From: Companilactobacillus heilongjiangensis
Lineage (GTDB): Bacteria; Bacillota; Bacilli; Lactobacillales; Lactobacillaceae
Direction: 5' to 3'
Assembly (NCBI RefSeq): GCF_000831645.3
Contig: NZ_CP012559.1
Location: forward strand, 2,046,001 to 2,110,000
DNA length: 64,000 nt
Positions 665 through 62,059 of this stretch are shown here, piece by piece. How positions within the stretch are numbered: position 1 is the stretch's first letter; every line of letters starts with the position of its first letter. A model generated the notes under the pieces. The model searched no databases and was not told where the DNA came from. It saw only the letters and a list, made by a program, of their open reading frames with translations. Both the position numbers and the translations under genes were made by a program.

Positions 665-846
665 AGTCGGAAGAGCTGGGAAGTATTCACCAGCAGTGGA
701 AGTGGCATTATTGCTTTAGCAATTACACCACCGGGCTAGTTTGGAGACTCGCGGGTTGTGCGAGGCTTCAAACCGAGGGACGAGACCGAACTTTGGCTCG
801 GCCCGGTCCGCACAGCAGGCGAAATACTTCTCAGCTCTGGAGACGG
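665..846 (+). repeat. Family-1 cloverleaf element, copy A
   Basis: Outer arms GAGCTGGGAAGTATTCACC and GGCGAAATACTTCTCAGCTC pair across the element. Inner hairpin 1 is ATTGC-TTTA-GCAAT, differing from the common ATGGC/GCCAT by a compensated pair. Hairpin 2 is TTTGGAGACTCGC with GCGAGGCTTCAAA; hairpin 3 is the GAGACCG...CGGCTCG-type arm ending GGCCCGGTCC. It fills most of the gap between apbE and the flavoprotein gene. Confidence 0.85.
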
Positions 847-920
847 AAGCAAAAATTATTTTTTTATCGTGAACACTACTCATAATAGTCTTTTATGTCG
901 ATTTCGACAAAAGGAACTTG

Positions 921-949
921 TTCACAAGTTTTATAATTAGAGTTATATT
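921..949 (+). promoter_or_regulatory. Candidate promoter for the flavoprotein gene
   Basis: TTCACA and TATATT are separated by 17 bp, 35 bp upstream of the start at 984. A second TATAAT at 932 lies inside the spacer, so the exact -10 is uncertain. Confidence 0.4.
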
Positions 950-983
950 TATCCTATCATTAAGAGGAAATGGAGTGAATGAA

Positions 984-2810
984 ATGTTTGATAATTCTAA
1001 TTTAAAATGGGACGCAACATATGATGTCGTCGTTCTAGGTTTCGGTGGCGCTGGTGCTTCTGCTGCCAGATTTGCGGCTGATAATGGTGCCAAAGTTTTA
1101 ATCACAGATTCAGCTCCCGAGGGTCATGAAGGTGGTAATACTCGTTACGCCGGACAAGTTATTTCAACTGGTGCTGACCTTGACGATTTGCGTAAATATT
1201 ACCAAGACTTGGCTTTTCCTTTGTCATACGATAAGGATTTAATGGAAACTTACATCCAAGGTTTATATCGTATTCCTGATTATTTGGAAAATTATCTTGG
1301 CGTAAAGCCATTTATCATGAGAGATCATCCCGAATCACCTGTTTCAAAAGCCTTGCACTTTATGGCTCACGAATATCCAGAATTCCGTGGACAAGCTACT
1401 CACGATTTAGTTGCTATGCATGAAGGCGTTGCTGACTCTGCACTCTGGAAGAATTTGCGTCAACAAGTCTTAGACCGTGCTGATAAGATTGATGTTTTGT
1501 ACAGCACACCAGCTGAACACTTGATTCAAGACCCTAATACTAGAGCCGTTGTTGGTGTTCAAATTAAACGTGACGGCAAAGACTTAAATGTCAGAGCTAA
1601 AAACGGTGTCGTTATGGCAACTGGTGGTTTTGAAAACAATCCTAAGATGGTTGAAACTTACCTTGGAGAAACAAGCTTGAACCCAATCGGTTCACTTTAT
1701 AACAAAGGTATCGGTGTCAAAATGGCCAGTGAAGTCGGTGCAAAGCTTTACAACATGGATAACTACGAAGCCTATGGTATTTTCCATGGTTTGACTCCAA
1801 AGCCTGCTAAGGGTCAACGTTCACAATTCTTGCCATTCGACTGGCCTGCTTTCCACCAAGGTAGCTTAATCGTTGTCGGCGATGACGGTACACGTTACTT
1901 TGATGAAAACGAAATTCACAGACATGGTCACATCAAGGATCATGGCAACTGGAGAATTCCATTGGCTCCACGTCACCCATACGTTGTCTTTGACCAAAAG
2001 AAGTATGATGAATTGACTGGCGACAAGAATGCTCCATATCCAGAATTCATGGATTCAGTTGTTAAAGCTGATAATCTTGAAAGCCTTGCTGAAGTTATGA
2101 ACGTTGATGTTAAGAAATTAACTGACACAATCAAAGACTTCAACCACTTCGCTGATATCAAACGTGACTACGCATACAATCGTGACCCCGAAACTTTGAC
2201 AGCCTTTGGAGACGGTCCATATTATGCACTTGCCATGGTTCAAGGACTATTGAACACTCAAGGTGGACCCGTTCACAATTCTAAGGCCGAAGTAGTCGAC
2301 AATGACGATGTCGTTATCCCTCATCTTTATGCCATTGGTGAACTAGGAAGCTTGATGGGCCGTCAATATAACGGTGGTAGTAACTTAGCTGAAAACTTAA
2401 TTTTTGGTAAAATTGCTGGTGAAAACGCTGCTGAAACTAAGGATGAAATCAAAGTTGACGAACCAAAGGTTGACGCTGAATCATCTGCCAGTGTTCACGA
2501 ATCAGGCTTAGGTTCTGATGTTGTTGAAGAACACTACGAAACAAAAGATAATCAATATATCGGTAAATCAACTGCTGGTATGGGTAACGAAATCGTTGTC
2601 CGTGTCACAGCTGACAGTAAAGACGATATTAAAAACATCGAAGTTTTGAAGCAAAGTGAATCCGATGACTACGGTCTCAAGGCGGTTAAAGAATTGCCTA
2701 AGGAAATCGTTGAAAAGAATTCAGTCGATGTTGATACTGTTTCTGGTGCTTCAGCTTCAAGCAAAGCTATTAAAGAAGCCGTTGCTAACGCATTAGCTCA
2801 AGTTAAATAA
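984..2810 (+). CDS. FAD-dependent reductase with C-terminal FMN-bind domain (fumarate/urocanate reductase type)
   Basis: The 608-residue protein opens with a Rossmann FAD site (VVVLGFGGAGASAARFA, residues ~14-30) of the FAD_binding_2 family and ends with an FMN-bind domain (~residues 510-608). The acceptor motif DTVSGASAS near the C-terminus matches the D-x-x-(S/T)-G-A-(S/T) site flavinylated by ApbE enzymes. There is no signal peptide or heme motif, so a soluble cytoplasmic reductase is likely. The late FAD motif RQYNGGSNLAEN differs from classical fumarate reductases, so the electron acceptor is unknown. I chose ATG 984 because GGAGTG lies 6 bp upstream; an in-frame upstream extension lacks a ribosome site. 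The neighbouring apbE supplies the FMN transfer. Confidence 0.88.
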   Translation: MFDNSNLKWDATYDVVVLGFGGAGASAARFAADNGAKVLITDSAPEGHEGGNTRYAGQVISTGADLDDLRKYYQDLAFPLSYDKDLMETYIQGLYRIPDYLENYLGVKPFIMRDHPESPVSKALHFMAHEYPEFRGQATHDLVAMHEGVADSALWKNLRQQVLDRADKIDVLYSTPAEHLIQDPNTRAVVGVQIKRDGKDLNVRAKNGVVMATGGFENNPKMVETYLGETSLNPIGSLYNKGIGVKMASEVGAKLYNMDNYEAYGIFHGLTPKPAKGQRSQFLPFDWPAFHQGSLIVVGDDGTRYFDENEIHRHGHIKDHGNWRIPLAPRHPYVVFDQKKYDELTGDKNAPYPEFMDSVVKADNLESLAEVMNVDVKKLTDTIKDFNHFADIKRDYAYNRDPETLTAFGDGPYYALAMVQGLLNTQGGPVHNSKAEVVDNDDVVIPHLYAIGELGSLMGRQYNGGSNLAENLIFGKIAGENAAETKDEIKVDEPKVDAESSASVHESGLGSDVVEEHYETKDNQYIGKSTAGMGNEIVVRVTADSKDDIKNIEVLKQSESDDYGLKAVKELPKEIVEKNSVDVDTVSGASASSKAIKEAVANALAQVK

Positions 2811-2822
2811 ATATTTGTATAT

Positions 2823-2858
2823 TAAAAGCCCTGAATGAACTTATTCAGGGCTTTTTTT
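2823..2858 (+). terminator. Rho-independent terminator after the flavoprotein gene
   Basis: AAAAGCCCTGAATGA / TTATTCAGGGCTTTTTTT hairpin with a T-run, 13 bp after the stop codon. Confidence 0.9.
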
Positions 2859-2872
2859 GTGTTCCGTGTTCT

Positions 2873-3058
2873 GCCGTCAAAGGTTGAGAGGGATGGTAGC
2901 CTGCTGTGGGACTGGCTCGAGCCAAAGAGCGGTCTCGACCCTCGCTTTTGAGCTTCGCAAAGTACGCGAATCTCAAAAGACGTCCTGTGCTGTAAGGCCG
3001 GAAATTCACCGGCCTAACACCACTTTCACTGCTGGCTCCATCCCTCTCAACCTTTGAC
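2873..3058 (-). repeat. Family-1 cloverleaf element, copy B
   Basis: Arms AAAGGTTGAGAGGGATGG and CCATCCCTCTCAACCTTT are perfect complements. Hairpin 1 is TAAGGCCGG / CCGGCCTA, unlike all other copies but still paired. The core runs opposite to copy A. It starts just after the terminator, and the open frames across it are by-products of the palindrome. The rest of the 2811-3223 gap shows nothing else. Confidence 0.85.
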
Positions 3059-3223
3059 TCATATATCAATAAACTATTTATTTTATTGGATTAATATTTT
3101 AAAATTATAAATTTGAAAAATCCAGCAAATCCCATAATCTTACATTGTTAAAAACGAATCAATATCTCTCAAGAACAGCCATACACAAAATATATGTTAC
3201 CTATCTCATCAAGTACAAAAATA

Positions 3224-3403
3224 GCCGGATTTCGTCAGTAATGTAGGCTGCTATGGAGGTGGAGTTATGGCTTTAGCCATTACACCACGGGGCGAGTTTG
3301 AAGACTTTCCGATTTATGGAAAGGCTTCAAATCGAGGTTCGAGACCGCACTTCGGCTTGGACCGGTCCCCATAGCGCCTACATTACTGACGAAATCCGGC
3401 GGC
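3224..3403 (+). repeat. Family-1 cloverleaf element, copy C
   Basis: The outer stem has a 23-bp perfect match (arm start CCGGATTTCGTCAGTAATG, arm end CATTACTGACGAAATCCGG). Hairpin 2 is GACTTTCC / GGAAAGGC, hairpin 3 GAGACCGCACTTCGGCT. It ends 7 bp from the stop codon of the hydrolase gene, without entering it. Confidence 0.88.
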
Positions 3404-3409
3404 AAACTT

Positions 3410-15593: not shown

Positions 15594-17042
15594 CTAGTAG
15601 TGGCCACCATTTTTGGTTGCTTTGACATCGATATCCTCTAGCTTGATGAACTTGGTCTTATATCTGACCTTATAGTAAATCCAGCAGATGAAGAGAATAA
15701 TCAAACCACTGTAACTGATCAACAGACGGCCAATGTTGAAGTTAACCATTGAACGGACGTCTTGACCAAGGATAATAATAATACCTAAAACGATTGCCAA
15801 TAAAGGTCCGAATGGGAACCATTTTGCTTTATACTTCAAATCATCTAAATCATAGCCTTTATATATGTAGGCTTTTCTGAAACGATAATGTGAGAAAGCA
15901 ATTCCCAACCATGCGATAAAGCCGGTCAATCCCGAAGCTGCAACTAGTAATTCGTAGAATGAATCACCGTACAAACTTGTGAACAGGGCAATACCACCGA
16001 CCAAAGCCGTCAATAATAGTGAAAATACTGGCACACCACGTCCATTAGTTCTTTGGAAAGCCTTTGGTGCCATGCCATTTTTACTCATTGACCAAAGCAT
16101 ACGACTAGCAGCGTACAAACCTGAGTTAGCAGCCGAAATAACTGAAGTTAAGATAACCGCGTTCATGATACCAGCAGCTAGTGGAATACCAACTTTTTTG
16201 AAAACAATCGTAAATGGACTGATAGCAATATCGCCAGCGCCTGAACCTAGCAAGTTAGGACTTGTATAAGGAATCAAGGCACCGATAACGGCGATTGACA
16301 AAATATAGAATAATAAAATTCTCCAGAAGACTTGCTTGATAGCCTTTGGAATACTCTTTTCAGGAGTAGCTGATTCACCGGCTGTAATACCGATCAACTC
16401 AGTCCCTTGAAACGAGAACCCAGCAACAACGAAGACGCTTAGGATTGCCGGCACGCCCCCAACAAATGGAGCATGTTTATACGTATAGTTTGAAAGTCCA
16501 ACGGAACCATGTCCGCCTAAAATACCCATAATAGTTAAAACACCACAGATCAAAAAGATAATTACGGCAGTAACTTTAATTGATGACAACCAATATTCTG
16601 TTTCACCAAATGAACCAACCGAAATGAAATTGATAATCAGGAGCACAATCATGAACGTCAAACTGACTTTCCACGACGACAAACCTGGGAACCAATACTT
16701 AACAACTAAAGAAATAGTGGAGAGATCAACCGCCAAAGTAATCGCCCAGTTGAACCAGTAATTCCAACCTAGCGCAAAACCGAAGGCAGGATCAATAAAT
16801 TTTGTAGCATATGTTGCAAAAGACCCAGAAACTGGCATATAAGTTGCCATCTCTCCCAAACTAGTCATCAGGAAGTAAACCATAATACCGATAGCCACAT
16901 AAGCTATCAAGGCACCCCCCGGACCTGCTGTTGAAATTGAAGAACCACTCGCAACGAACAAGCCGGTACCGATTGAGCCACCTAGCGCAATCATCGACAA
17001 GTGACGAGTCTTCAACGACCTATTCACATCATTATTTTCCAT
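15594..17042 (-). CDS. lysP: Amino acid permease, probably lysine-specific
   Basis: 482 residues with about 12 membrane segments of the APC superfamily, AAT branch. The N-terminus RSLKTRHLSMIALGGSIGTG is the diagnostic first-helix motif; GFSFQGTELIGITAGES and SAANSGLYAASRMLW are further family blocks. Lysine specificity is supported by the lysine riboswitch upstream, which is stronger evidence than the protein sequence. ATG 17042 is preceded by GGGGAATGAAAG. The stop is followed by repeat element E and no obvious terminator. Confidence 0.9.
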   Translation of the reverse strand: MENNDVNRSLKTRHLSMIALGGSIGTGLFVASGSSISTAGPGGALIAYVAIGIMVYFLMTSLGEMATYMPVSGSFATYATKFIDPAFGFALGWNYWFNWAITLAVDLSTISLVVKYWFPGLSSWKVSLTFMIVLLIINFISVGSFGETEYWLSSIKVTAVIIFLICGVLTIMGILGGHGSVGLSNYTYKHAPFVGGVPAILSVFVVAGFSFQGTELIGITAGESATPEKSIPKAIKQVFWRILLFYILSIAVIGALIPYTSPNLLGSGAGDIAISPFTIVFKKVGIPLAAGIMNAVILTSVISAANSGLYAASRMLWSMSKNGMAPKAFQRTNGRGVPVFSLLLTALVGGIALFTSLYGDSFYELLVAASGLTGFIAWLGIAFSHYRFRKAYIYKGYDLDDLKYKAKWFPFGPLLAIVLGIIIILGQDVRSMVNFNIGRLLISYSGLIILFICWIYYKVRYKTKFIKLEDIDVKATKNGGHY

Positions 17043-17142: not shown

Positions 17143-17270
17143 TGAGAGGGCGTAGAACAACGGGAACTTCCGTGGATTTACCTAGCTTAGCGAATTGCGC
17201 ACGATTTTGTGCGTGATTTGCTAAGCGTAGTAAACCACAGGAAGTTGTTGTTCGAAGCCCGTTTTGAAAC
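17143..17270 (-). repeat. Family-2 hairpin, copy 3 (inside the lysP leader)
   Basis: One long stem: TAGCTTAGCGAATTGCGCAC pairs with GTGCGTGATTTGCTAAGC. Ends AACGGGCTTCGAACAAC and TTGTTCTACGCCCTCTC match the ends of copies 1 and 2. It separates the aptamer from its terminator. Confidence 0.78.
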
Positions 17271-17271
17271 A

Positions 17272-17415
17272 CGACAGTCTACTGCCTATTAAGCAATAGC
17301 CCAATCAAATTACCAAGTAGGGATAATTGATTTCGGCAAACTTTCCTTTCATATTTTTTCAAAGTACCCTATCCGCACTCCAAAATACTAATAATAAAGA
17401 TTGCACCTCTATCTG
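17272..17415 (-). promoter_or_regulatory. Lysine riboswitch (L-box) aptamer upstream of lysP
   Basis: The minus strand contains the L-box core blocks in order: GATAGAGGTGC, TTAGTATTTTGGAG, TATGAAAGGAAAGTTTGCCG with GCCGAA, TTTGATTGGGC, and closing GACTGTC. P1 can form from GATAG and CTGTC. The order and spacing match the Bacillus subtilis lysC L-box. A family-2 hairpin starts at the base of P1. Confidence 0.92.
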
Positions 17416-17425
17416 ATTACAAAAC

Positions 17426-19427: not shown

Positions 19428-19482
19428 AGAAATTTTTTAGTTTTACCTCTTGAGTTCCATTTAGGATAGAATGGAACTGGGT

Positions 19483-19665
19483 CCGTCTCCGGTTACGAGG
19501 AGATTTCAGCCTGCTATGAGACCGGCTCGAGCCAGAGTACGGTCTCGACCCTCGATTTTGAGTCTCGCATAAAACCGCGAGTCTCAAAAATCGTCCGGTG
19601 TTGTAAGAGCTAAAGCTCTTACAACACCTCCACAGCTAGCTGAATCTCCTCGCAACCTCCGACTA
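19483..19665 (-). repeat. Family-1 cloverleaf element, copy F
   Basis: Outer arms GGTTACGAGGAGATTTCAGC and GCTGAATCTCCTCGCAACC. Hairpin 1 is TGTTGTAAGAGC / GCTCTTACAACA. Hairpin 2 is TTTTGAGTCTCGC / GCGAGTCTCAAAA. Lies between the small membrane protein and the TetR gene. Confidence 0.86.
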
Positions 19666-19714
19666 ATGTATTATGGATATGCAGTGTTATTGTTATACTA
19701 GTAGTCCAAAGCAA

Positions 19715-20472: not shown

Positions 20473-20516
20473 TAAAAGCGTTGGAATCTTTTTATAAAGA
20501 CTCCAGCGCTTTTTTA
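20473..20516. terminator. Bidirectional terminator
   Basis: AAAAGCGTTGGAATC / GACTCCAGCGCTTTTTT between the convergent TetR and SLAP/BspA genes. Confidence 0.8.
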
Positions 20517-23084
20517 GTATTCTTGAACTTTATCAGCACTAACAAATTCATTGGTTGCGACACGATAATATTTAGAATTATTTATGTAAATATATCTATC
20601 TGTATACCAGCCGCTATTTGCTTGCAATGCACGATCAGTTACATTCTTGCCGTCCGCTGTCACCAAACCAGCAACTGAACCGGTATTTACAAGTACATTG
20701 GAATCATGATTGTAATAAATATAAACATCGTCAGCTTTTGCCCATTGGTTCGTAGCCACACGATAATATTTATCATTGTTCAAAGTCATTGTTTCATCAG
20801 TGAACCAATCACTACCTAGAACAAGTTTTCTATCTGTTAATTGACTGCCTTCATCATCGTATAGTTGAACTTCTGGTCTGTCATTGTATGTGCCTAAGGT
20901 TCCTTCGATACCTTCGACTGTACGATTTGCTTCTGAACTGTTGCTTGAATTTGAGGATGAACCACCACCATTATTGTTGATTACTGGTGCATCACTGGGT
21001 TCCGGTTTATATATCAGTGTAGTAACATACTTGTATCCTGACATAAAATCGATATATTCCGGCTGCTGAGGAAGCAATTCATTAGCTAACTCAGTAATAA
21101 ATGCCCGACCGTAGAATAGCAAGGAATTTGAATCCCCAACGGACATTCCATTTATCAATGAGTCACTAATATCTTCGGATATTGAATCTTCTCCAAAAGG
21201 TTTATATAATATATTGCTACAAGGGACTATTTTGTCATCAGAAGTAATTATTTTTCTATCATTCGATATTTTTTTTAATTCATCATCAAGATTTGTTTCC
21301 TTATACCTTGATCCTACTCCAACCAAAATATCATGTGGCTTTCCACCTACAATCACACCATCCGTATTCTTCTCAATAACCTCAAACGTTATTAGATTTT
21401 TTGGAACTTTAATTTTGATAATTCCATTTGCATCAGCTGGGGTTGGGATAATTTCCGGTTGATAACCCGTATAGTAACCATCAAATGAAACACCTTCTGG
21501 TAAAGTATAACTGCTTAAAGGCGGAATCATATCGTACTCTCTATATGGATCTTCCTGGTATGTAATTCCTGGAGAAAATAATTTTGTAGGATCATCCTCT
21601 GCAACATATTCTACTTGAAACTTTATGGGTGCAACTTCATAAACCCATTTCCAAGTAACCAAACTGTTCTTATCAAGATTTCCAGAATACATTTTTACTA
21701 ATTGCTTCGATGTTTTTATTGTACCGACCGGAACATTATCGTCATTAGAACTAATGGCTTGCCATGCTACCGGTTTTGTATTTCCAATAGCAGGTCCATC
21801 GACTCCTAAATCATTTACTACATGGGTTCCATCATTTCCCACAATATATAAAACATTTCTACCCGATAACGTAATTTCATTCATATTCCGGTTACCCCTT
21901 AAAAAGTTTGATATCCTCTGGGTACCGTACATATCGAGATTAGATATATCCAATGATGCAAATTTAGGACTATCAGAAAATGTATCGGAGAACATAGAAT
22001 TAAAATTCAGCTTTGATTTATCCTGAACATTTGTTGAATTAATATAATTAAGCGGCAAGCTCAATGTTTCCAACCGCTGATCTCCTGCAAACATCCCAAA
22101 GAAATCAACTCCGTCTGACCATTTCCAATTCGAAATATCTAAAGTATTTAAATTATCGTCTCCATTAAACATATTAGAGAAATCTTCCACGTTAGAAACA
22201 TCCAAATTGTTTAAATTCAAACTCGTTAAACTTGAACAATCAGAAAATAAGAAACTCATATCAATTGTATTTTTAGTATTTATTTTTTCTAGACCATCGA
22301 TTTCTGTCATAGCACTAAATCCATCAAACATCCCAGAAAAATGTTCTCCGGCAATAATATCTCCATTAATTGAAACTTTGGTGATTGCTTTTTTCTCTGA
22401 GTCAGACCAAGGTACACTTGAATTACCCATATTATCGTCAGTTATATTGTTTAATGTACCGCCTTCAATATTCAAAACATCACCGTTGATACTCCAAGGA
22501 ACCCCAAGACTATTGTCTGTATGCATATCACTACCATCAGACTCTTTTTCCCTTTCTTGGTCTAATGCCGCTGCATCATCTGAGCTATTGCTTTCCTGTG
22601 AGTCATCATTGCTGATACTAGGTACATCCTGATTATTTGGGATATCTCCATTACCTGTATCAACTGGTCCTGTTGGAATCATAGCTTTAGTTTTATCTTG
22701 ATCATCAGGTTGTGTACTAGATTGACCAACTATTGGAGATCCGTCTTCAGAACTAGATTGACCACTAGTGTCCTTTTCATCTGTTAAACTTGCTTGTCCA
22801 TCAGGTTCTGCTTTAATTTCTGAACCCGAAGAATCAACAGAGCTATCTCCCGATTCAGTATCAGCTTGGGATTGGATCATTGAATCGGGCTTTGAAATAG
22901 ATTGACTAACCGGTGACATATTATTAACACTGTCAGCTTTAACAACTGTTGACTGAGATACGCCAAATAAAGCTAGTCCACTCATCAGACCTAAAGTGGA
23001 TTTAACTACCCAACTAGTACCACTTTTATATAATTTCTTTTTTAATATTACGTTTGAACTTCTTTTTAATTGTTGAAATCTCAA
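20514..23084 (-). CDS. BspA-type repeat surface protein with two C-terminal SLAP modules (paralogue 1)
   Basis: 856 residues. N-terminal KxYKxGKxW-like signal (KKKLYKSGTSWVVKSTLGLM, cleavage near VVKAD), a Ser/Asp-rich linker (~50-190), DUF285/BspA repeats of the type LDVSNVEDFSNMF and LDISNWKWSDG (~260-420), a beta-rich middle with MucBP-like VEYVAEDDPTKLF, and two SLAP modules at the end (…YYRVATNQWAKADDVYIYY… and …YYRVATNEFVSADKVQEY). SLAP modules bind cell-wall polymers non-covalently. Start is TTG 23084, with AGAGGGTG 6 bp upstream, as in its paralogues. One of three tandem copies and last in the array. Confidence 0.88.
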   Translation of the reverse strand: MRFQQLKRSSNVILKKKLYKSGTSWVVKSTLGLMSGLALFGVSQSTVVKADSVNNMSPVSQSISKPDSMIQSQADTESGDSSVDSSGSEIKAEPDGQASLTDEKDTSGQSSSEDGSPIVGQSSTQPDDQDKTKAMIPTGPVDTGNGDIPNNQDVPSISNDDSQESNSSDDAAALDQEREKESDGSDMHTDNSLGVPWSINGDVLNIEGGTLNNITDDNMGNSSVPWSDSEKKAITKVSINGDIIAGEHFSGMFDGFSAMTEIDGLEKINTKNTIDMSFLFSDCSSLTSLNLNNLDVSNVEDFSNMFNGDDNLNTLDISNWKWSDGVDFFGMFAGDQRLETLSLPLNYINSTNVQDKSKLNFNSMFSDTFSDSPKFASLDISNLDMYGTQRISNFLRGNRNMNEITLSGRNVLYIVGNDGTHVVNDLGVDGPAIGNTKPVAWQAISSNDDNVPVGTIKTSKQLVKMYSGNLDKNSLVTWKWVYEVAPIKFQVEYVAEDDPTKLFSPGITYQEDPYREYDMIPPLSSYTLPEGVSFDGYYTGYQPEIIPTPADANGIIKIKVPKNLITFEVIEKNTDGVIVGGKPHDILVGVGSRYKETNLDDELKKISNDRKIITSDDKIVPCSNILYKPFGEDSISEDISDSLINGMSVGDSNSLLFYGRAFITELANELLPQQPEYIDFMSGYKYVTTLIYKPEPSDAPVINNNGGGSSSNSSNSSEANRTVEGIEGTLGTYNDRPEVQLYDDEGSQLTDRKLVLGSDWFTDETMTLNNDKYYRVATNQWAKADDVYIYYNHDSNVLVNTGSVAGLVTADGKNVTDRALQANSGWYTDRYIYINNSKYYRVATNEFVSADKVQEY

Positions 23085-23109
23085 TTATTTCACCCTCTTA
23101 TTCGAGTTC

Positions 23110-23129
23110 ATTGTACACCCTTTCACAAT
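23110..23129 (-). promoter_or_regulatory. Conserved upstream motif of paralogue 1
   Basis: Minus strand ATTGTGAAAGGGTGTACAAT, ending 26 bp before the TTG start. TACAAT can serve as the -10; the same 20-bp block precedes the other two paralogues. Confidence 0.6.
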
Positions 23130-23162
23130 TATTATTATCATTAACTTAAACATCAATTTATA

Positions 23163-23203
23163 AAAAAACTCGAGTAAATTTTCATCTACTCGAATTTTCT
23201 TTT
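23163..23203 (-). terminator. Terminator of paralogue 2
   Basis: CTCGAGTA / TACTCGA hairpin; minus strand runs into T7 after the stem. Directly follows the paralogue 2 stop. Confidence 0.65.
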
Positions 23204-25695
23204 TAGTATTCTTGAACTTTATCAGCACTAACAAATTCATTGGTTGCGACACGATAATATTTAGAATTATTTATGTAAATATATCTATCTGTATACCAGC
23301 CGCTATTTGCTTGCAATGCACGATCAGTTACCGGCTTACCACCTGCTGTAACCAAACTAGCAATCGAATCTGAATTTACCAATACATTAGCAGCATGACC
23401 ATGGTAAATATAAACATCATCAGCTTTAGCCCATTGATTTGTAGCTAAACGATAGTATTTATCACCATTTAAAGTCCTAGTTTCATCAGTGAACCAATCA
23501 CTGCTTGGAGCCAACTTTCTATCAGTTAATTCCGTACCAGAATCATCGTATAATTTGACTTCTGGAGAATCATTATAGGTGCCTAAAGTTCCATTGATAC
23601 TTTCTGGTTCATTGTTCTCAGGTTTAACTTCATTCGAACTGGAACTGGAGTGGGAACCAGAGCTGGTATTATTATTATTTTCTTCAGGTTCATATAATAT
23701 GTGAAAAATATACTTCATTCCAGAAAGACTTTCATCTACCGACCCAAGCGCCTCAACATAAGTTCTCACGAACATTCTAATATTGGATTTCACTTCACTT
23801 ATCGGAACATTGTCATTTAATTTGGACACTTCCTTAAGCATACCGTCATCAATCGGTATTGATCCACCTAATTCTGGACCATATTGTACTTGTTCAAGCG
23901 AACTATACTCACTAATAGAGGAGGTAGCACCTTCGGAATACATAATCATTTCTCTGTCTTCAGGAAAGTCCTTAAGTTCTTTCGAGTAATCTATCCCCGT
24001 ATTACCAGTTTTTCCAATCGGAATATAGAATGTATGGGACTTATTTTCCGTACCTGCCGTATTTGTTTCAATTACCTGTATAGTAACCTGCTTTTTAGGT
24101 ATTGGAATCAATGCCACACCTTCGTCATCCTTAGTCAGGAAAAACCTGCCATCGTATCCAGTGTAATAATCATCCAATGAAATATTACTTGGTACTTTTG
24201 ATGCATCAAAATGCGTTTTAAAATAAGTATATGGTGGCTGAGTTGTATATTCTTCATCCGTATAGAAAACTTTTGAATGATCATCTTCGGCAACATATCT
24301 TGCCTTAAATTTCATAGGTAATTCATAATCCCATTTCCATGTTATCTTACTATGAACGTCCAACGATCCATTATACATATTTCGTAACATGTCAGTAGCT
24401 TTTACATCCCCCACCTTAATTTTTGCATCATCAGATTTAGTTGCAATCCATGCAACAGCTATTGGTACAGAACTTGAGTTTAAATCATTATCTTGGGAAT
24501 CATAATATATAGAAGGATTATTCATAATAGAGCGTGCCAGATTGGTTTGAGGCGCTAAAGTTAGTTCTTGTAAATTCTTCTCATCATAAAGTAGCTCATT
24601 GATATTTTCTGGATTAACTCCTGCCATATCGATATTTGATATATCCAATGACGTCAATACGTAATTTCTACTGAACATCTTTCTAAACATGAGTTTAGAT
24701 TTATCAGAAACACTTGTAGAATTAATACTTTTGGGTAATATCAAACTCTCCAGATTCATTGCACCGTCAAACATTTCTTTAAAATTACTTCCCATAATCC
24801 AATTCCAATTAGAAATATCCAATCTCTTCAGGTTGCTGTTAATAAGAAACATTTCTGAAAAGTTTTCGACATTGGATACATCCCAATTATTTAAATCCTG
24901 TTCGCCAATATTTCCAGAATTTCTAAATAAGTAACTCATATCCACTGTGTTGGATGTATCCAGATTATCCAATCCTGTAAATTGGTTAACATTACTAAAG
25001 TCAGCAAACAAACCTGAAGCACTCTTCCCAGCGATAACTTTTTTTGTAATTCGAATCGTTGTAACTTGGCTCTTATCAATGCCACTCGTAATCCATGGAT
25101 TCTTAATATCACTAGGTTCTGAATTTTCCCCCTGAATATACGTAGTATCTTTCAATGTCCCACCATTGATTGTCAAAGTAGTTCCATCTTCACTGAGGTT
25201 ATAATCAATTCCCCAGTCAGTGGAATCAGCTGGGGCTTCATTACTGGAAACATCATCAGTTTCTGAGTGTTCTACAGGTTGGGCCATATTATTTTCTGGC
25301 TTATTTGATGAATTATCTGGTTCCCCTTCTTCTATAACTGGTTCCTTTGTCTCAATATCAGAGGTCACGTCACCCTTATCTGGAATCCCCTTTTCTTGTG
25401 GTACATCAGCATTCTGACCACTAGCATCTTCTTTAGTTTGTTCAGGTTGAGTAGCTGGATCAGCATTCACATCTTTGTCATCATTCTGCGGCTGTTCAAC
25501 TGATTCCGAAGTAGCTTGGCTAACTGGTGTCAAATCAGTTGTATCAGCTTGAACAGTAGTTAATTGAGACACGCCAAATAAAGCTAGTCCACTTGCCAAA
25601 CTCAAAGTCGACTTTACTATCCAATTCCTACCACTTTTATACATTTTTTTCTTTAATATAGCGTTTGAATATCTTTTTAATTGCTGAAATCTCAA
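23203..25695 (-). CDS. BspA-type repeat surface protein with two C-terminal SLAP modules (paralogue 2)
   Basis: 830 residues from the TTG at 25695, chosen because AGGAGG lies 7 bp upstream; a longer frame to 25728 has no ribosome site. Architecture as paralogue 1: KKKMYKSGRNWIVKSTLSLA signal, acidic linker with EDASGQNADVPQ and PENNMAQPVEHSE, DUF285 repeats (WDVSNVENFSEMF, LDISNWNW), a VRYVAEDD-like MucBP-type region (ARYVAEDDHSKVF), then two SLAP modules. The last ~128 bp are identical at DNA level to paralogue 1, indicating recent duplication or gene conversion. Likely wall-bound adhesin. Confidence 0.88.
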   Translation of the reverse strand: MRFQQLKRYSNAILKKKMYKSGRNWIVKSTLSLASGLALFGVSQLTTVQADTTDLTPVSQATSESVEQPQNDDKDVNADPATQPEQTKEDASGQNADVPQEKGIPDKGDVTSDIETKEPVIEEGEPDNSSNKPENNMAQPVEHSETDDVSSNEAPADSTDWGIDYNLSEDGTTLTINGGTLKDTTYIQGENSEPSDIKNPWITSGIDKSQVTTIRITKKVIAGKSASGLFADFSNVNQFTGLDNLDTSNTVDMSYLFRNSGNIGEQDLNNWDVSNVENFSEMFLINSNLKRLDISNWNWIMGSNFKEMFDGAMNLESLILPKSINSTSVSDKSKLMFRKMFSRNYVLTSLDISNIDMAGVNPENINELLYDEKNLQELTLAPQTNLARSIMNNPSIYYDSQDNDLNSSSVPIAVAWIATKSDDAKIKVGDVKATDMLRNMYNGSLDVHSKITWKWDYELPMKFKARYVAEDDHSKVFYTDEEYTTQPPYTYFKTHFDASKVPSNISLDDYYTGYDGRFFLTKDDEGVALIPIPKKQVTIQVIETNTAGTENKSHTFYIPIGKTGNTGIDYSKELKDFPEDREMIMYSEGATSSISEYSSLEQVQYGPELGGSIPIDDGMLKEVSKLNDNVPISEVKSNIRMFVRTYVEALGSVDESLSGMKYIFHILYEPEENNNNTSSGSHSSSSSNEVKPENNEPESINGTLGTYNDSPEVKLYDDSGTELTDRKLAPSSDWFTDETRTLNGDKYYRLATNQWAKADDVYIYHGHAANVLVNSDSIASLVTAGGKPVTDRALQANSGWYTDRYIYINNSKYYRVATNEFVSADKVQEY

Positions 25696-25719
25696 TTCCC
25701 ACACCTCCTGTTTATACAC

Positions 25720-25739
25720 ATTGTACACCCTTACATAAT
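25720..25739 (-). promoter_or_regulatory. Conserved upstream motif of paralogue 2
   Basis: Minus strand ATTATGTAAGGGTGTACAAT, 25 bp before the start; variant of the block before paralogues 1 and 3. Confidence 0.55.
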
Positions 25740-25782
25740 TATGTATATACAGAATTTGTGAAATAATTAATTTATTTTAAAT

Positions 25783-25824
25783 TAAAAACGTCAATAATCA
25801 TTTCTGATTATTGACGTTTTTTTA
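25783..25824 (-). terminator. Terminator of paralogue 3
   Basis: AAAAACGTCAATAATCA / TGATTATTGACGTTTTTTT hairpin directly at the end of paralogue 3. Confidence 0.85.
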
Positions 25825-27930
25825 ATATTCTTGAACTTTATCGACACTAACAAATTCGTTGGTAGCAACTCGATAATATTTTTCACCGTTGATATAAGTG
25901 TATCTATCAGTATACCAGCCACTGCCTCCTTGCAATGCACGATCAGTAACATCCTTACCTTGCGATGTAACTAGTCTAGCAATTGAGTCTTTATTCACAA
26001 GGACGTTAGCTGCTTTTGGATAGTAAATATAGACATCGTCAGCTTTAGCCCACAAGTCAGTTGCGACACGATAATACTTAACACCCTTTAGTGTCATCAA
26101 ATTATCAGTGTACCAATCGCTGCTAGGTGCTAATTTGCGGTCTTTGACAATATCGCCATTGTCATAGTAAAGTTGGACATCTGAGTTATTCTTGTGGGTT
26201 CCAATTCTTTCTTCAATACCTTTGATTTCCCGGTCTACAGTTGTTGTAGAAGAACTGCCACCGGAATTGGTATTTTTATCAGGTTCATAGAAGGCGTAAA
26301 AATCCACTTTCATTCCTTCATAGAAGGTAGGTATAGTTCCCTCTACCTCATCTACAAGACTATTAGCAAGTCCTTGAATTATATCACTATAGCTACTGTA
26401 ATCGGTTAATTTCAGATTTGTTAAAAGATCTTCAGTAATATTCATTGGATTACCCAAAAAAACAAAATAACTTTTACTTTTATCAAAAGTATCGGGTGGA
26501 GTATCAGGATCAACAAGAATCAACTTTTTATTCTTTAATACATCTAACTGACCTTTAAAATTAACTTTTCCATCAACAATATCATTATTTGACATAATGA
26601 TATCCCTTGGGACACGCTTACCATTTTCATATACAACAAATTTAATTACTGCTTTCGGAATTTTAACGTTAATAGATTTTCCATCTATATCCTTAGTTAA
26701 AATGATCGACTCTGGCTTAAATTGTATCGCATGACCACTATCTGTCGATCCAATTGTTCCTAAAGCTGCTGGTTTAAATTCTGAAAAAGGTAAAACTTTA
26801 TCACCACTAGTTATCTCTCTTGTTGTAATAAGAGAACCATCATCTTCATCAACATATCGAACGGTGAAATTCATATATGGCAATTCATTCCAGGTCCATG
26901 TTGCCACTTCACTATCCTTTTTATCATCTCCAACATACATATCCATCAAATCATCGTTACTAGCATTCACACTGGAATCACCATTCTTCTTCCATCCAGC
27001 GACCCCTTGATTTTCATCATCAATAACTGAATATTTAGGATCCAGTCCAGCTTTTGTCAAATTATTCATGGACGACAATATCAAAGTTGAAACGGATTCC
27101 GCCGAATTAAGTAAATTATCAACTTTATCTGTTTTAGACATATCTAATCCTGATAAATTAAGTGATTTCACCGCTTTATCATAGTGGAACATATTTGAAA
27201 AATCGCTATCAGACTTACCCGAACTTAATCCAGTTGGTAAATCTATAGTTTCTAGCTTCTCACAAAATTCAAACATACTCTTAAAATTTGTTCCGGCTGG
27301 CCATTTCCAGCTAGATAAATCGATTCCTGTCAACTCATGATTTTGTAAAAACATGTTGGAGAAATCAGTTACCTTGTCCGTTTGAAGCTTACTTACATCA
27401 ATAGTTTTCAAATTATTACAATCGGCAAATGCATAACTCATGTCTGTTACGTTCGATGTATCAAGCTTATCCAATCCATCAATCTCCTCAACGTTAACAA
27501 ACTCTTTAAATAATCCAGAAATATCCTCTCCAGCAGTTATATTGCCGGTAATTTCAATCTTTTTGACATCCAGTAAATTCAGATCACCCCACTGTGTTGT
27601 ATTACGAGGGTCGTCATAACCATAATAGTGAGTATTATCTAAATTTCCGCCTGAAATTTGGAGTGTGTCACCAGAGAATTTCCAATCGACACCCCAATTA
27701 CCTGAAATTTCACCAGTAGGTTCATTTTCCTTTGTTACTGTTTTTGGAGTTATTTCAGAACTACTCGGTTGTTCAGTAGTATCTGTAGTGGCTTGAGTGA
27801 CGGTTGATTGAGAAACACCAAATAAAGCTAATCCGCCCACTAACCCCAAAGCAGACTTAACTATCCAATTCTTAATACTTTCCTTTCTTAAAATATTATT
27901 CGTTGACCTTTTTACTTGTTGAAATCTCAA
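25822..27930 (-). CDS. BspA-type repeat surface protein with two C-terminal SLAP modules (paralogue 3)
   Basis: 702 residues from TTG 27930; AGGAGG lies 8 bp upstream, while the alternative GTG at 27939 overlaps the ribosome site. Signal region RKESIKNWIVKSALGLVGGL, shorter linker than the paralogues, DUF285 repeats (LDTSNVTDMSYAF, IDVSKLQTDKVTDFSNMF, LNLSGLDM), a VRYVDEDDGSLITTREI MucBP-like strand set, then two SLAP modules (KYYRVATDLWAKADDVYIYY, KYYRVATNEFVSVDKVQEY). The most diverged of the three at its C-terminus. First gene of the tandem array; each copy has its own promoter motif and terminator, so they are separately transcribed. Confidence 0.88.
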   Translation of the reverse strand: MRFQQVKRSTNNILRKESIKNWIVKSALGLVGGLALFGVSQSTVTQATTDTTEQPSSSEITPKTVTKENEPTGEISGNWGVDWKFSGDTLQISGGNLDNTHYYGYDDPRNTTQWGDLNLLDVKKIEITGNITAGEDISGLFKEFVNVEEIDGLDKLDTSNVTDMSYAFADCNNLKTIDVSKLQTDKVTDFSNMFLQNHELTGIDLSSWKWPAGTNFKSMFEFCEKLETIDLPTGLSSGKSDSDFSNMFHYDKAVKSLNLSGLDMSKTDKVDNLLNSAESVSTLILSSMNNLTKAGLDPKYSVIDDENQGVAGWKKNGDSSVNASNDDLMDMYVGDDKKDSEVATWTWNELPYMNFTVRYVDEDDGSLITTREITSGDKVLPFSEFKPAALGTIGSTDSGHAIQFKPESIILTKDIDGKSINVKIPKAVIKFVVYENGKRVPRDIIMSNNDIVDGKVNFKGQLDVLKNKKLILVDPDTPPDTFDKSKSYFVFLGNPMNITEDLLTNLKLTDYSSYSDIIQGLANSLVDEVEGTIPTFYEGMKVDFYAFYEPDKNTNSGGSSSTTTVDREIKGIEERIGTHKNNSDVQLYYDNGDIVKDRKLAPSSDWYTDNLMTLKGVKYYRVATDLWAKADDVYIYYPKAANVLVNKDSIARLVTSQGKDVTDRALQGGSGWYTDRYTYINGEKYYRVATNEFVSVDKVQEY

Positions 27931-27954
27931 AATCTTCACCTCCTAGGTAGGCTT

Positions 27955-33713: not shown

Positions 33714-34211
33714 ATGGATTTAGATTTTAAAGGCGACACAATTACAACTTATGGCGACCCATTGACTGTTGGTGAAACATTCCCCGACTTTACTGTGCTT
33801 GATAAGGATAATAACGTGGTCAAATTGAGCAGTCTGCTTGATAAGCCAGTTTTGATCAGTGTTGTGCCAGATATCAACACACGTGTCTGCAGCATTCAAA
33901 CCAAGCACTTCAATGAAGAAGTTGCCGGTCATGCTGAAATCAATTTCGTAACTATCTCAACTAATACACCAGAAGAACAAGCTAACTGGTGTGCAGCTGA
34001 AGGTGTCGAAAATATGCAAATGCTATCTGACATGGATCATGACTTTGGTAAGAAGTCTAAGATTTGGATCAGAGACCGCAATATCTTGGCTCGTTCCGTT
34101 TGGGTAGTCGATAAGAATGGCGAAATCATCTATTCCGAAATCGTCCCAGTTCAATCAGATGAACCAAGCTATGACCGTGTACTTGGTCAATTGAACGAAT
34201 TAATAAAATAG
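33714..34211 (+). CDS. tpx: Thiol peroxidase (atypical 2-Cys peroxiredoxin)
   Basis: 165 residues. Peroxidatic Cys59 lies in VVPDINTRVCSIQT and resolving Cys93 in NWCAAEG, the layout of Tpx enzymes that reduce lipid and hydrogen peroxides using thioredoxin. The usual PS of the active-site loop is PD here. It acts in the cytoplasm. GAAAGGGTGATTTTGT precedes ATG 33714. The stop is followed after 3 bp by repeat element H, then a terminator. Confidence 0.95.
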   Translation: MDLDFKGDTITTYGDPLTVGETFPDFTVLDKDNNVVKLSSLLDKPVLISVVPDINTRVCSIQTKHFNEEVAGHAEINFVTISTNTPEEQANWCAAEGVENMQMLSDMDHDFGKKSKIWIRDRNILARSVWVVDKNGEIIYSEIVPVQSDEPSYDRVLGQLNELIK

Positions 34212-35333: not shown

Positions 35334-35470
35334 ATTGATGTTAATTTAAATTCTATTATTTCATTAAAAATCTGTTTATACTTCTAGGATACATCTACAT
35401 TCCATATTAAACATTGATTTATACAATTAAAAATCAAGTACACAGATATATCCAGAATATCAGATACAAG

Positions 35471-35625
35471 AGCTGGAGGTTGCCAGTGATTGTGGCGTTA
35501 CGGCTTTAGCCGTTACACCACGGACGACTTTTGAGACGCGGTTTTCGGCTCAAAAGCGAGGCGCGAGACCTTGGCTCGCACCGGTCCTCACAGCGAACCC
35601 CAATCACTGGCAACCGGAAGCGGCA
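35471..35625 (+). repeat. Family-1 cloverleaf element, copy I (shortest full copy)
   Basis: Outer stem GGTTGCCAGTGATTG / CAATCACTGGCAACC, 15 bp perfect. Hairpin 1 is ACGGC-TTTA-GCCGT, a compensated variant of ATGGC/GCCAT. Hairpin 2 is CTTTTGAG / CTCAAAAG. The stretch between the outer stem and hairpin 1 is missing, making it about 155 bp. Fills the gap before the NAD(P)-binding gene. Confidence 0.86.
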
Positions 35626-35742
35626 TATTTCAAAACCAACATCTTTTATTCAAGTTTAATATAGAAGAATATAAGATACAAAACACTAGCTTTATTAAAA
35701 AATTGTTGCTACAGTATGGTTAACTAAGGAGGTTTTGTGTGT

Positions 35743-57916: not shown

Positions 57917-57949
57917 TAATTTATGTTGTTTACAATTATATTGTTAGTG

Positions 57950-58109
57950 GTGTCTCCGGTTGCGAGAAAAAGTCTATCTGCTGTGCGACCGACTTGAGCC
58001 AAGGTCTCAAGTCTCGATTTTGGGCTTCGCAAAGTACGTCGGTTGTGTAAAGGCTAAAGCCTTAACACGACCTGCACTGCTGATAGATTTTTTCTCGCAA
58101 CCTCCGGCT
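57950..58109 (-). repeat. Family-1 cloverleaf element, copy N
   Basis: Outer arms GGTTGCGAGAAAAAGTCTAT and ATAGATTTTTTCTCGCAACC. Hairpin 1 is TGTGTAAAGGC / GCCTTAACACG. Hairpin 2 is shortened, about 20 bp are missing compared with other copies. Confidence 0.83.
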
Positions 58110-58192
58110 TTTTTTATTCGTTGGTTGTTTTTCTCTTTTAACATACTGTTGAATACTTAAAAACTTATGTGGATCTCTTTGATAACTCACTA

Positions 58193-59121: not shown

Positions 59122-59661
<540 letters not shown>

Positions 59662-59676: not shown

Positions 59677-59718
59677 TGTCGTTATCGACAATAGATAGTA
59701 TATGTCGATAACGACATA
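59677..59718. promoter_or_regulatory. Two PadR operators
   Basis: TGTCG-TTAT-CGACA at 59677-59690 and TATGTCG-ATAA-CGACATA at 59701-59718, near-identical palindromes 24 bp apart. One lies in the promoter spacer, one just behind the -10 of padC. Confidence 0.8.
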
Positions 59719-59725
59719 TAGTCAA
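59697..59725 (-). promoter_or_regulatory. padC promoter
   Basis: Minus strand TTGACT-17 bp-TATACT, 39 bp upstream of the ATG at 59658; both operators overlap it. Confidence 0.88.
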
Positions 59726-59791
59726 GAAAAAAAGACAAATAATTCCTTATTGGGAACCATCTGTCTTATACATCTTTTGAAATTATTTGTT
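59726..59791 (-). terminator. Terminator of the Band-7 operon
   Basis: Minus strand CAAATAATTTC ... GGAATTATTTG with following CTTTTTTT; long imperfect stem. Confidence 0.6.
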
Positions 59792-60601: not shown

Positions 60602-60611
60602 ATTTATCCGC

Positions 60612-60944: not shown

Positions 60945-60953
60945 ACCCGCATT

Positions 60954-60990
60954 ATATCACCCTTATATCAAAGTGATATCATTCTGATAT
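60954..60990. promoter_or_regulatory. Four TGATAT/ATATCA boxes, probable RHH operator
   Basis: ATATCA at 60954 and 60965, TGATAT at 60974 and 60985, spaced 9-11 bp, i.e. on one face of the helix, as expected for cooperative RHH dimers. Overlaps the promoter of the RHH/Band-7 operon. Confidence 0.65.
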
Positions 60991-61002
60991 TGACAAAATG
61001 CC

Positions 61003-61030
61003 AAAAAAAATAAGGCCACTAAAGTAGCCC
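61003..61030 (-). terminator. Terminator of the GT8 gene
   Basis: Minus strand GGCTAC-TTTA-GTGGCC then TTATTTTTTTT, overlapping the GT8 stop. Confidence 0.65.
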
Positions 61031-61828
61031 TGCTTTTCGTTGATAATGCTTATATAATCCTGAAAAACGTTCTTTGTATTCGGGGCGCCATGGTTTGTCA
61101 CGACCGCAGAAATGTAAAATAGCCGTGTGATCAATCACCCAATCGATGTCCCACTCGCCATTACTTTTTGCATAATAAAGTGGATTCATCCTTGCATCAT
61201 AATTGTATAATTCATCGGGGATTCTCATAATATTTTGACCGTACAGACCATTCAAAATATCCTGATCTGGCAACAATAATGTAGCTCCCATCTTATTGAT
61301 ATAGTTGAAAATATCTTCAGCTTTGACATTTTCTCGGATAGCCTGCAAATCCATCAACATGATCCCAGAATTAAAGTAACCCTCAGCCTCATAATTACCC
61401 AAACGCAATTTATTGATGTTATCAGTTACGTCCAAAGATGTGTGACTGGCAGCCGCATACCAGTAATTTTTCAAATCAATTGTATATAACGGCTTCAAAT
61501 CATTAATAACTAAAATATCAATATCCAAATAAAGAATCCGTTTAATATTTTTAGGCAAATACTTATATGCCAATAGTCGATAATAGATAGTCTTAGGATA
61601 ACGGTCAGTCGTTGGTGCATCGTCAAATTGGTCATCATCAATTATTACGGGGTGATAATGCATCCCTAACTTCTGACAAAAACTTTTAATTTCATCGTTC
61701 TTGCGTAATTTCTGATCTTGAATTACATAGACAGAATACTTTTCAAAGGTAGAATTCTGTTTAATCGAATATAAAGTAGTCATTAATTGTTGCGTTACAT
61801 TGTCATCAATCGCAAATAATAAATTCAT
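61019..61828 (-). CDS. Family-8 glycosyltransferase
   Basis: 269 residues from ATG 61828 (AGGAGGG 5-6 bp upstream; a longer frame to 61846 is unsupported). GT8 hallmarks: MNLLFAIDDNVTQQLMTTLY at the start, the metal-binding DxD in RILYLDIDILVIND (Asp102, Asp104), NSGIMLMDLQAIRE and PDQDILNGLYG, and ILHFCGRDKPW near the end. Retaining hexosyl transferase, donor UDP-Gal or UDP-Glc. Stand-alone gene; possible roles are wall teichoic acid or surface glycoprotein decoration. Confidence 0.92.
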   Translation of the reverse strand: MNLLFAIDDNVTQQLMTTLYSIKQNSTFEKYSVYVIQDQKLRKNDEIKSFCQKLGMHYHPVIIDDDQFDDAPTTDRYPKTIYYRLLAYKYLPKNIKRILYLDIDILVINDLKPLYTIDLKNYWYAAASHTSLDVTDNINKLRLGNYEAEGYFNSGIMLMDLQAIRENVKAEDIFNYINKMGATLLLPDQDILNGLYGQNIMRIPDELYNYDARMNPLYYAKSNGEWDIDWVIDHTAILHFCGRDKPWRPEYKERFSGLYKHYQRKAGLL

Positions 61829-61883
61829 ACATACCCTCCTAGTCAATCATCCTCAACTAAATTATACTATAACTTGGCGTGGA

Positions 61884-62059
61884 GCCGCCGAAGGACGGCA
61901 GAGATTGAGTCTGCTATGAGGACCGGCGTGAGCCAAGGTCTCACACCTCGCTTTGAAGCCTTGCAAGTTCGGCAAGTCTCCAAAGTCGCCCTGTGGTGTA
62001 ATGGCTAAAGCCATAACGCCACCTCCACAGCTGTCTCAATCTCTGCCGTCCTTTGGCTA
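61884..62059 (-). repeat. Family-1 cloverleaf element, copy P
   Basis: Outer arms AAGGACGGCAGAGATTGAG and CTCAATCTCTGCCGTCCTT, 19 bp perfect. Hairpin 1 is GGTGTAATGGC / GCCATAACGCC. Hairpin 2 is TTTGAAGCCTTGC / GCAAGTCTCCAAA. Between the GT8 and deformylase genes. Confidence 0.88.

What the first reader, a model, noticed from the sequence alone, without database searches (positions are those of the whole stretch)
665..62059. Thirteen-copy family of intergenic cloverleaf elements with covarying stems
Full copies at 665, 2873, 3224, 15338, 19483, 34215, 35471, 36698, 46718, 57349, 57950, 58898 and 61884, each 155-193 bp, all intergenic and in both orientations. Every copy has one outer stem of 15-29 bp and three inner hairpins. 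The outer-arm sequence differs between copies (for example GGTTGCCAGTGATTG, AAGGACGGCAGAGATTGAG, CCGGATTTCGTCAGTAATG), yet each arm matches its partner almost perfectly. That cannot come from simple descent by point mutation without a force that keeps the arms complementary: selection on an RNA or DNA structure, or template-switch correction in cruciforms. I know no named repeat family with this sequence.
Basis: partly seen in the sequence, partly recalled or inferred. Interest (0 to 1): 0.93.

Follow-up and report, generated by a model that had tools for sequence, protein, structure and literature searches.

The report
Mobile cloverleaf repeats in lactic bacteria
Hundreds of short jumping DNA pieces in the chromosomes of lactic acid bacteria each carry a folded cloverleaf, and when one side of a stem mutates the other side often changes to match, so the shape survives long after the piece has landed.

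Summary
All 13 copies are real (covariance model, 126-179 bits). They belong to a family of a Companilactobacillus chromosome: 150 full hits scored, 135 full copies in 550 kb sampled, by extrapolation about 500. It occurs in 104 of 397 sampled genomes of its bacterial family and matched no Rfam model. It is mobile: the nearest species, C. huachuanensis, lacks some copies, keeps scars of others and has its own. There a young subfamily is a complete MITE of ~320 bp with 14-bp inverted ends and 8-bp target duplications. An older subfamily has other ends, so the cloverleaf rides in at least two vehicles. Their transition:transversion ratio resembles unpaired sites, which fits one-step templated correction better than repair through G-U, though numbers are small. 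Selection on some copies remains likely: in six genomes of a probably streptococcal genus the matching copy lies between infB and rbfA. No transposase and no function was shown. Close copies face outward (55 of 61), unexplained.

The parts
663..849 (+). cloverleaf copy 1 (TAGTC-type, older subfamily)
   Evidence: CM hit 161.8 bits; sister site not covered (contig end)
2871..3061 (-). cloverleaf copy 2; with copy 3 an outward-facing -+ pair, 159 bp apart
   Evidence: CM hit 153.8 bits; pair
3221..3405 (+). cloverleaf copy 3
   Evidence: CM hit 163 bits
15336..15533 (+). cloverleaf copy 4
   Evidence: CM hit 143.3 bits
15274..15549 (+). inserted unit around copy 4: absent from the syntenic site of the sister species, short TATATT-like repeats at both junctions, inverted-repeat-like ends
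   Evidence: filled/empty comparison; end search
19480..19666 (-). cloverleaf copy 5; sister species keeps a truncated orthologue (119 nt)
   Evidence: CM hit 162.4 bits
34213..34396 (-). cloverleaf copy 6, directly after the stop codon of ORF 33714-34211; the sister copy in this gap is of its young subfamily
   Evidence: CM hit 168.9 bits
35469..35626 (+). cloverleaf copy 7, shortened stems; the sister copy in this gap is of its young subfamily
   Evidence: CM hit 134.8 bits
36694..36871 (+). cloverleaf copy 8; sister species has a deletion scar with a remnant of the left arm
   Evidence: CM hit 178.8 bits
46715..46899 (+). cloverleaf copy 9; the sister copy in this gap is of its young subfamily and shortened
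   Evidence: CM hit 172 bits
57347..57530 (-). cloverleaf copy 10; sister site without it (about 299 bp extra here)
   Evidence: CM hit 151.3 bits
57947..58111 (-). cloverleaf copy 11, hairpin 2 mostly missing; sister site without it, possibly a scar (short remnant like its 3' end)
   Evidence: CM hit 126 bits
58895..59078 (+). cloverleaf copy 12; sister site without it (274 bp extra here)
   Evidence: CM hit 166.3 bits
61882..62060 (-). cloverleaf copy 13; sister site without it
   Evidence: CM hit 161.8 bits

Best explanation
These are copies of a family of non-autonomous DNA transposons (MITE type) of Lactobacillaceae chromosomes whose conserved part is a ~185-nt cloverleaf: an outer stem, an inner multiloop and three hairpins. 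Shown: mobility (sites with and without the element, private insertions, inverted ends, target duplications), high copy number, at least two sets of ends carrying the same cloverleaf, and compensatory base-pair change at fixed sites after two species split. Inferred: a transposase acting in trans inserts new units into AT-rich intergenic DNA; it was not found. After insertion the flanks drift, while in the cloverleaf a mutation in one arm is often copied into the other, most simply by template switching or hairpin-templated repair when the single strand folds during replication; deletions remove copies now and then. The conserved unpaired bases, and the conserved infB-rbfA copy in another genus, suggest that the shape also has a recognised function, as RNA or as single-stranded DNA. 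Which one is not known.
For: Copies: 13 in the window; 150 of 150 scored candidates in the genome; 135 full copies in 550 kb here and 110 in 496 kb of the sister; 4.5% of the sampled DNA. Mobility: sites with and without the element against the syntenic sister region. Complete unit in the sister: alignment of 23 young copies. Of 53 candidate end pairs (some overlapping or spurious) 10 have exact 8-bp and 6 exact 7-bp direct repeats within 3 bp of the ends; no shuffled control was run for these. Other vehicle: different ends, with 10-11-bp direct repeats at 2 of 4 units that enclose a copy. Covariation. In-situ compensation: 17 orthologous pairs, 129 against null 11.5 (both directions), slid control 0.46% against 5.7% of cells; 13 reciprocal-best pairs, 44 and 46 against 3.4 and 3.2. 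Spectrum, transition:transversion: double changes 33:31, unpaired sites 76:71, 3' flank 42:63, single changes at paired sites 54:34. Conservation beyond pairing: element identity 0.889, 5' flank 0.709. One orthologue shows four adjacent pairs replaced together on both arms (by eye). Another genus: the matching copy lies between infB and rbfA in all 6 genomes that matched.
Against: The mobiliser is unknown: among 1070 ORFs of 120 aa or more near copies only three clusters of six or more members appeared, none a transposase by eye; smaller clusters were not examined. Inverted ends and duplications were shown in the sister genome and for one window copy; the abundant TAGCC-type window copies have no recognisable ends. 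The 3' flank is as conserved as the element (0.894), but it was also a selection criterion. Family-wide there is a strand bias (G-T 33, A-C 11 on pairs predicted from both strands), which strand-blind DNA correction alone would not give. New single changes lean the same way weakly (10:8 and 14:6; 36:26 in the wider set). In the strict set double changes are 24:20 and 26:20 against 53:53 and 55:60 at unpaired sites, a slight transition excess; no significance test was run on the spectra. Template switching was inferred, not observed: 36 of 42 blocks of double change in 12 orthologues are single pairs.
Confidence: 0.66

Rival explanations
1. Each resident copy is kept by selection on an RNA structure (terminator, UTR stabiliser, processing or regulatory RNA), and compensation runs through ordinary G-U intermediates.
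For: Excess of G-T over A-C on one strand family-wide: 33:11 on the 36 pairs predicted from both strands, 109:15 on the structure derived from that strand (biased towards it); consensus energy -62.9 against -49.3 on the other strand. Conserved unpaired positions. Conserved copy between infB and rbfA in another genus. Element more alike between orthologues than its 5' flank.
Against: No preference for gene orientation: the four flanking classes hold 23, 20, 19 and 19 of 81 copies. Copies come and go between sister species, and 7 of 24 orthologous sites fail the similarity cut, four of them visibly truncated in one species. Double changes are not clearly enriched for transitions over unpaired sites.
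Confidence: 0.3
2. Compensated pairs are imported by gene conversion or re-insertion from other copies that already carry matched arms.
For: Hundreds of similar copies; in one pair the long and short forms of hairpin 2 differ between the two species (L144:10334 and L159:9576); 4 of 17 orthologue candidates are not reciprocal best matches.
Against: 13 of 17 are reciprocal best among the 138 and 115 copies compared, and these still give 44 and 46 double changes. The changes are mostly scattered single pairs, not tracts.
Confidence: 0.15
3. The cloverleaf is itself the transposition or recombination substrate, a folded single-strand end of the IS200/IS605, REP or integron attC kind.
For: Structure kept while sequence varies; strand asymmetry; the 3' end lies within 33 bp of the junction in 22 of 28 full copies classed as facing an empty site (one or two of these are scars).
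Against: Inverted ends with 8-bp duplications are not the IS200/IS605 outcome (recalled). Unit ends lie outside the cloverleaf. Both strands are used equally in the sampled 550 kb (69 +, 66 -). Two units of about 150 bp have the same ends and no model hit (a third overlaps a weak 43-bit hit).
Confidence: 0.08
4. Pairs of cloverleafs are long inverted ends of one composite transposon, and single copies are its halves.
For: Neighbours under 300 bp apart face outward in 55 of 61 cases and never inward; under 400 bp in 31 of 35 cases in named loci, including Levilactobacillus and Secundilactobacillus.
Against: The 12 pairs compared are no more alike (mean 0.69) than random copies (0.64 in this genome, 0.73 in the sister) and often of different subfamilies. 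Complete units with one cloverleaf exist. At 300-600 bp 2 of 11 pairs face inward.
Confidence: 0.07

Closest known systems
Bacterial MITEs in general (RUP, NEMIS, ERIC, EFAR; named in PMC3733652, passage read)
   Same: Short, intergenic, no coding capacity, inverted ends, target duplications, many copies
   Different: A conserved ~185-nt cloverleaf shared by units with different ends, an estimated 500 copies per genome, and measured compensatory change at fixed sites. I did not compare sequences with these families except through Rfam.
bcr1-bcr18 repeats of the Bacillus cereus group (PMC6542083 and PMC3446304, passages read)
   Same: 100-400 bp intergenic repeats, mobile features, mostly chromosomal, some with conserved structure
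   Different: bcr1 is reported at 11-130 copies per genome, specific to the B. cereus group and tied to a TTTAT motif; here other duplications, other hosts and more copies
Template-switch maintenance of RNA hairpins (PMC8794818, passages read)
   Same: Proposes that template switching can create and maintain perfect stems by one-step compensation
   Different: That study used known RNA genes and calls its strongest evidence on maintenance circumstantial; here it is a high-copy bacterial DNA repeat with syntenic orthologues

Membership tests
MITE (non-autonomous DNA transposon) | short, no transposase ORF inside | tested here: met
   inserted units about 220-340 bp, too short for a transposase gene
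MITE (non-autonomous DNA transposon) | terminal inverted repeats | tested here: met
   14-bp ends in the young subfamily of the sister genome, both ends identical to the motif in 5 units (consensus); another set in the older subfamily; not recognisable for TAGCC-type window copies
MITE (non-autonomous DNA transposon) | target-site duplications | tested here: met
   exact 8-bp in 10 and 7-bp in 6 of 53 candidate end pairs, sister genome; no shuffled control
MITE (non-autonomous DNA transposon) | sites with and without the element in relatives | tested here: met
MITE (non-autonomous DNA transposon) | parental transposase with the same ends | tested here: inconclusive
   no transposase-like cluster of six or more among 1070 ORFs near copies; whole genomes not searched for it
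bcr1 group | TTTAT target motif | tested here: not met
   the duplications are diverse 7-8-mers, none a TTTAT repeat
IS200/IS605- or REP-type element | no inverted ends and no target duplication | tested here: not met
   both present; definition recalled
Rfam family | match to one of 4227 covariance models | tested here: not met
   none on the element at gathering score in the window or in 12 loci of distant relatives; none on the element at E<=1 in 8 loci
integron attC site | integrase core sites and cassette genes | not tested
   considered only from shape

The most novel reading that the evidence does not exclude
The cloverleaf is a self-maintaining DNA shape: replication itself keeps copying one arm onto the other, so hundreds of mobile copies keep covarying stems without selection on each copy. 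If so, strong covariation in a bacterial repeat is not by itself proof of a functional RNA, and this family is a natural clock for template-switch correction.
Probability: 0.35. Interest if true: 0.85.

Novelty: new variant of a known kind. Interest (0 to 1): 0.7.

Why it matters
It adds a large structured mobile family across Lactobacillaceae, including fermentation species such as Levilactobacillus brevis, that takes up about 4.5% of the sampled DNA of one genome and matched no Rfam model. More generally it offers many syntenic copies in sister species in which in-situ compensatory change can be counted without phylogenetic doubt. That makes a long-standing question testable in free-living bacteria: whether stem covariation comes from selection or from template-directed mutation.

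Tried and rejected
Rfam at gathering and relaxed thresholds gave nothing on the element. By blastn, plasmids gave one 69-bp partial match, in a Limosilactobacillus reuteri plasmid, and none with a Levilactobacillus copy; phages gave none with the one copy tried. These tools may leave out records close to the window's genome. A search for a recurrent neighbouring transposase gave none in clusters of six or more. Long inverted ends of a composite transposon: rejected because pair members are not alike. Orientation by gene context: rejected; that the 3' end is nearer to a gene in 73 of 81 copies is probably due to the AT-rich 5' part of the unit (inference). My first orthologue calls included independent young insertions in the same gap; I then required a homologous adjacent 3' flank and finally reciprocal-best matches, dropping 4 of 17. 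Site 36694, first classed empty, is a deletion scar, and 57947 may be one. The first mapping query hit a repeated gene family and was of little use.
Full report
WHAT IS THERE. The 13 copies are real. A covariance model built from 41 copies of this genome finds all 13 in the window at 126-179 bits, full length (the 13 were among the 41). The copies share one plan, read here on the strand that carries the TCGAGACC..GGTCC core. The outer stem has a 3+3 internal box, GGA/GGA in 19 of 41 or GGA against TCC in 14 of 41, never TCC/TCC. An inner stem follows, and a multiloop with three hairpins. Two window copies are shortened (35469-35626 and 57947-58111). On the MAFFT alignment 97.9% of cells pair (shuffled 86.6%) and 32 of 52 pairs have double changes (shuffled 15.8, none of 500 shuffles reaching it; slid partners 8-15).

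HOW MANY AND WHERE. The window lies at 2,046,001-2,110,000 of a 2.79-Mb single-contig genome. All 150 candidates that the tool scored there, of 1692 in its first look, are full hits. In 550 kb sampled I found 135 full copies; 306 kb of that was reached through loci that hold copies, so density there may be high. The window plus the 180-kb stretch gave 47 in 244 kb, which extrapolates to roughly 500 per genome. Within the genus 31 of 36 genomes match, within the family 104 of 397 genomes and 12 of 40 genera, within the order 26 of 395; the last two used stricter filters. Named hosts (71 stretches, one exact pattern) are Companilactobacillus nantensis, huachuanensis, hulinensis and jidongensis, six Levilactobacillus species including L. 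brevis, two Secundilactobacillus, Lactiplantibacillus xiangfangensis and two unclassified Lactobacillus records. By blastn, one short partial match was found in plasmids and none in phages.

IT IS MOBILE. A window gene is 97% identical in protein to its G011 counterpart and the regions are syntenic. Of the 13 window copies, 4 face sites without the element (15338, 57349, 58898, 61884), 1 a clear and 1 a possible deletion scar (36698, 57950), 1 a truncated orthologue (19483), 3 a gap in which G011 has a different, young copy (34215, 35471, 46718), and 3 lie beyond the G011 contig end. G011 also has private copies where the window has none. The inserted pieces are larger than the cloverleaf: in 22 of 28 full copies classed as facing an empty site its 3' end is within 33 bp of the junction (up to 149 in the rest), while the 5' side brings tens to hundreds of bp of AT-rich DNA. 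Aligning 23 young G011 copies shows a unit of about 320 bp with 14-bp inverted ends, the cloverleaf starting about 110 bp from one end and stopping 25 bp from the other. Among 53 candidate end pairs in 496 kb of G011 (overlapping and spurious pairs included), 10 have exact 8-bp and 6 exact 7-bp direct repeats within 3 bp of the ends; I ran no shuffled control for these. Two units of about 150 bp have the same ends and no cloverleaf; a third overlaps a weak 43-bit hit. An older subfamily, which includes window copy 15338, has other ends; two of four such units that enclose a copy, both in G011, show 10-11-bp direct repeats. So the cloverleaf travels in at least two vehicles. Near copies no ORF cluster of six or more members looks like a transposase (1070 ORFs).

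THE STEMS ARE KEPT AFTER LANDING. The decisive test compares the same copy in two species. I required a homologous adjacent 3' flank and good element similarity; 24 sites have a copy in both, and 17 passed. Pairs were predicted from one species only and scored in the other. Summed over both directions, 129 pairs changed on both sides and still pair (null 11.5, range 5-22 in 300 simulations that keep the number and type of substitutions), while one-sided broken pairs are 83 (null 272). Sliding the partner gives 0.46% of cells instead of 5.7%. Thirteen of the 17 are reciprocal best matches among 138 and 115 copies. These alone give 44 and 46 double changes against 3.4 and 3.2 (null range 0-10 in 1000), 0 to 9 per copy. 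Gene conversion of whole elements is therefore not the main cause, although one pair differs in the form of hairpin 2 and 4 of 17 fail the reciprocal test. By eye, one orthologue (L147:13539) shows four adjacent pairs replaced on both arms together (GTTG/CAAC to TCCT/AGGA); it was not counted because the hit was cut at a locus border. Otherwise 36 of 42 blocks in 12 orthologues are single pairs.

WHICH FORCE. Two-step repair through G-U predicts mostly transition-type double changes. In the 17 orthologues the ratio is 33 transition to 31 transversion type, close to unpaired sites (76:71), while the 3' flank has 42:63 and single changes at paired sites 54:34; C-G to G-C is seen once in 64. In the strict set double changes are 24:20 and 26:20 against 53:53 and 55:60 at unpaired sites. 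I ran no significance test on these small numbers. They favour one mutation copied to the other arm, as template switching would do; PMC8794818 (passages read) proposed that for RNA genes and calls its strongest evidence on maintenance circumstantial. Against a purely mutational account: the family prefers G-T over A-C on one strand (33:11 on the 36 pairs predicted from both strands), unpaired positions are conserved, and the element is more alike between orthologues than its 5' flank (0.889 against 0.709), though no more than its 3' flank (0.894, itself a selection criterion). In new single changes the strand bias is weak (10:8 and 14:6). I therefore hold a mixed view: templated correction does much of the repair, and the shape also has a function at least in active copies.

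A RELATIVE THAT LOOKS DOMESTICATED. Outside the family the model finds one match in each of six genomes of one genus (E 6e-9 to 2e-10; only six candidates per genome were scored, three matches are partial, and the number of genomes sampled in that genus is not shown). All six sit between infB and rbfA: NCBIfam names IF-2 and RbfA in one, and the same ORF sequences flank the others. The cloverleaf core has few variable columns; the whole intergenic stretch is 94-99.6% identical and infB 93-97%. Genome G695 of another family has at least four copies in the stretches fetched, one beside hflX.

UNEXPLAINED ORDER. Neighbouring copies under 300 bp apart face outward in 55 of 61 cases, six run the same way and none inward; at 300-600 bp it is 7 outward, 2 inward and 2 the same way. 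Named loci give 31 of 35 under 400 bp, with 4 the same way (best 150 of 183 matches); these partly repeat the G011 genome but include Levilactobacillus (5 of 5) and Secundilactobacillus (2 of 2). Pair members are not more alike than random copies. Larger target size on the AT-rich 5' side plus loss of direct and close inverted repeats could explain it, but this was not tested.

LITERATURE. Ten searches of the held library listed no paper that describes this family, as far as titles and abstract starts show. Term searches in six papers: PMC2267715 lists only a gene-borne family for its one Lactobacillus; the MITE review PMC10969869 has no occurrence of lactobacill; PMC3733652 none of lactobacillus; bcr1 in PMC6542083 and PMC3446304 is the nearest analogue in kind; PMC8794818 gives the template-switch idea. 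Most subscription papers are not held, so an older description cannot be excluded.

Noticed in passing
window 17248-17419 (-): Lysine riboswitch (93.6 bits) upstream of an amino-acid permease ORF at 15594-17042 (-).
   Followed up: no
window 20514-27939 (-): Three adjacent large ORFs (856, 841, 705 aa) share stretches of about 300 bp that are 75% identical; similar stretches recur in relatives.
   Followed up: no
L192 2003-2158, L193 2000-2155, L194 2034-2189, L195 2033-2141, L196 2039-2147, L197 2087-2195: Relative of the cloverleaf between infB and rbfA in six genomes of one genus outside Lactobacillaceae, with few variable columns.
   Followed up: partly
L016 2896-3064 (G000:C1 about 1800332-1800500): A different repeat with many matches in G011, including a tandem array of about 55-bp units in contig C23; the covariance model does not list it as a cloverleaf.
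   Followed up: no
L201 1903-2073, L202 2018-2174, L204 1187-1350 and 6915-7064: Variant cloverleafs of other genomes of the family, about 150-170 nt, that seem to lack hairpin 3.
   Followed up: no
window 2871-3405 and many loci: Copies under 300 bp apart are arranged with 3' ends outward in 55 of 61 cases.
   Followed up: partly
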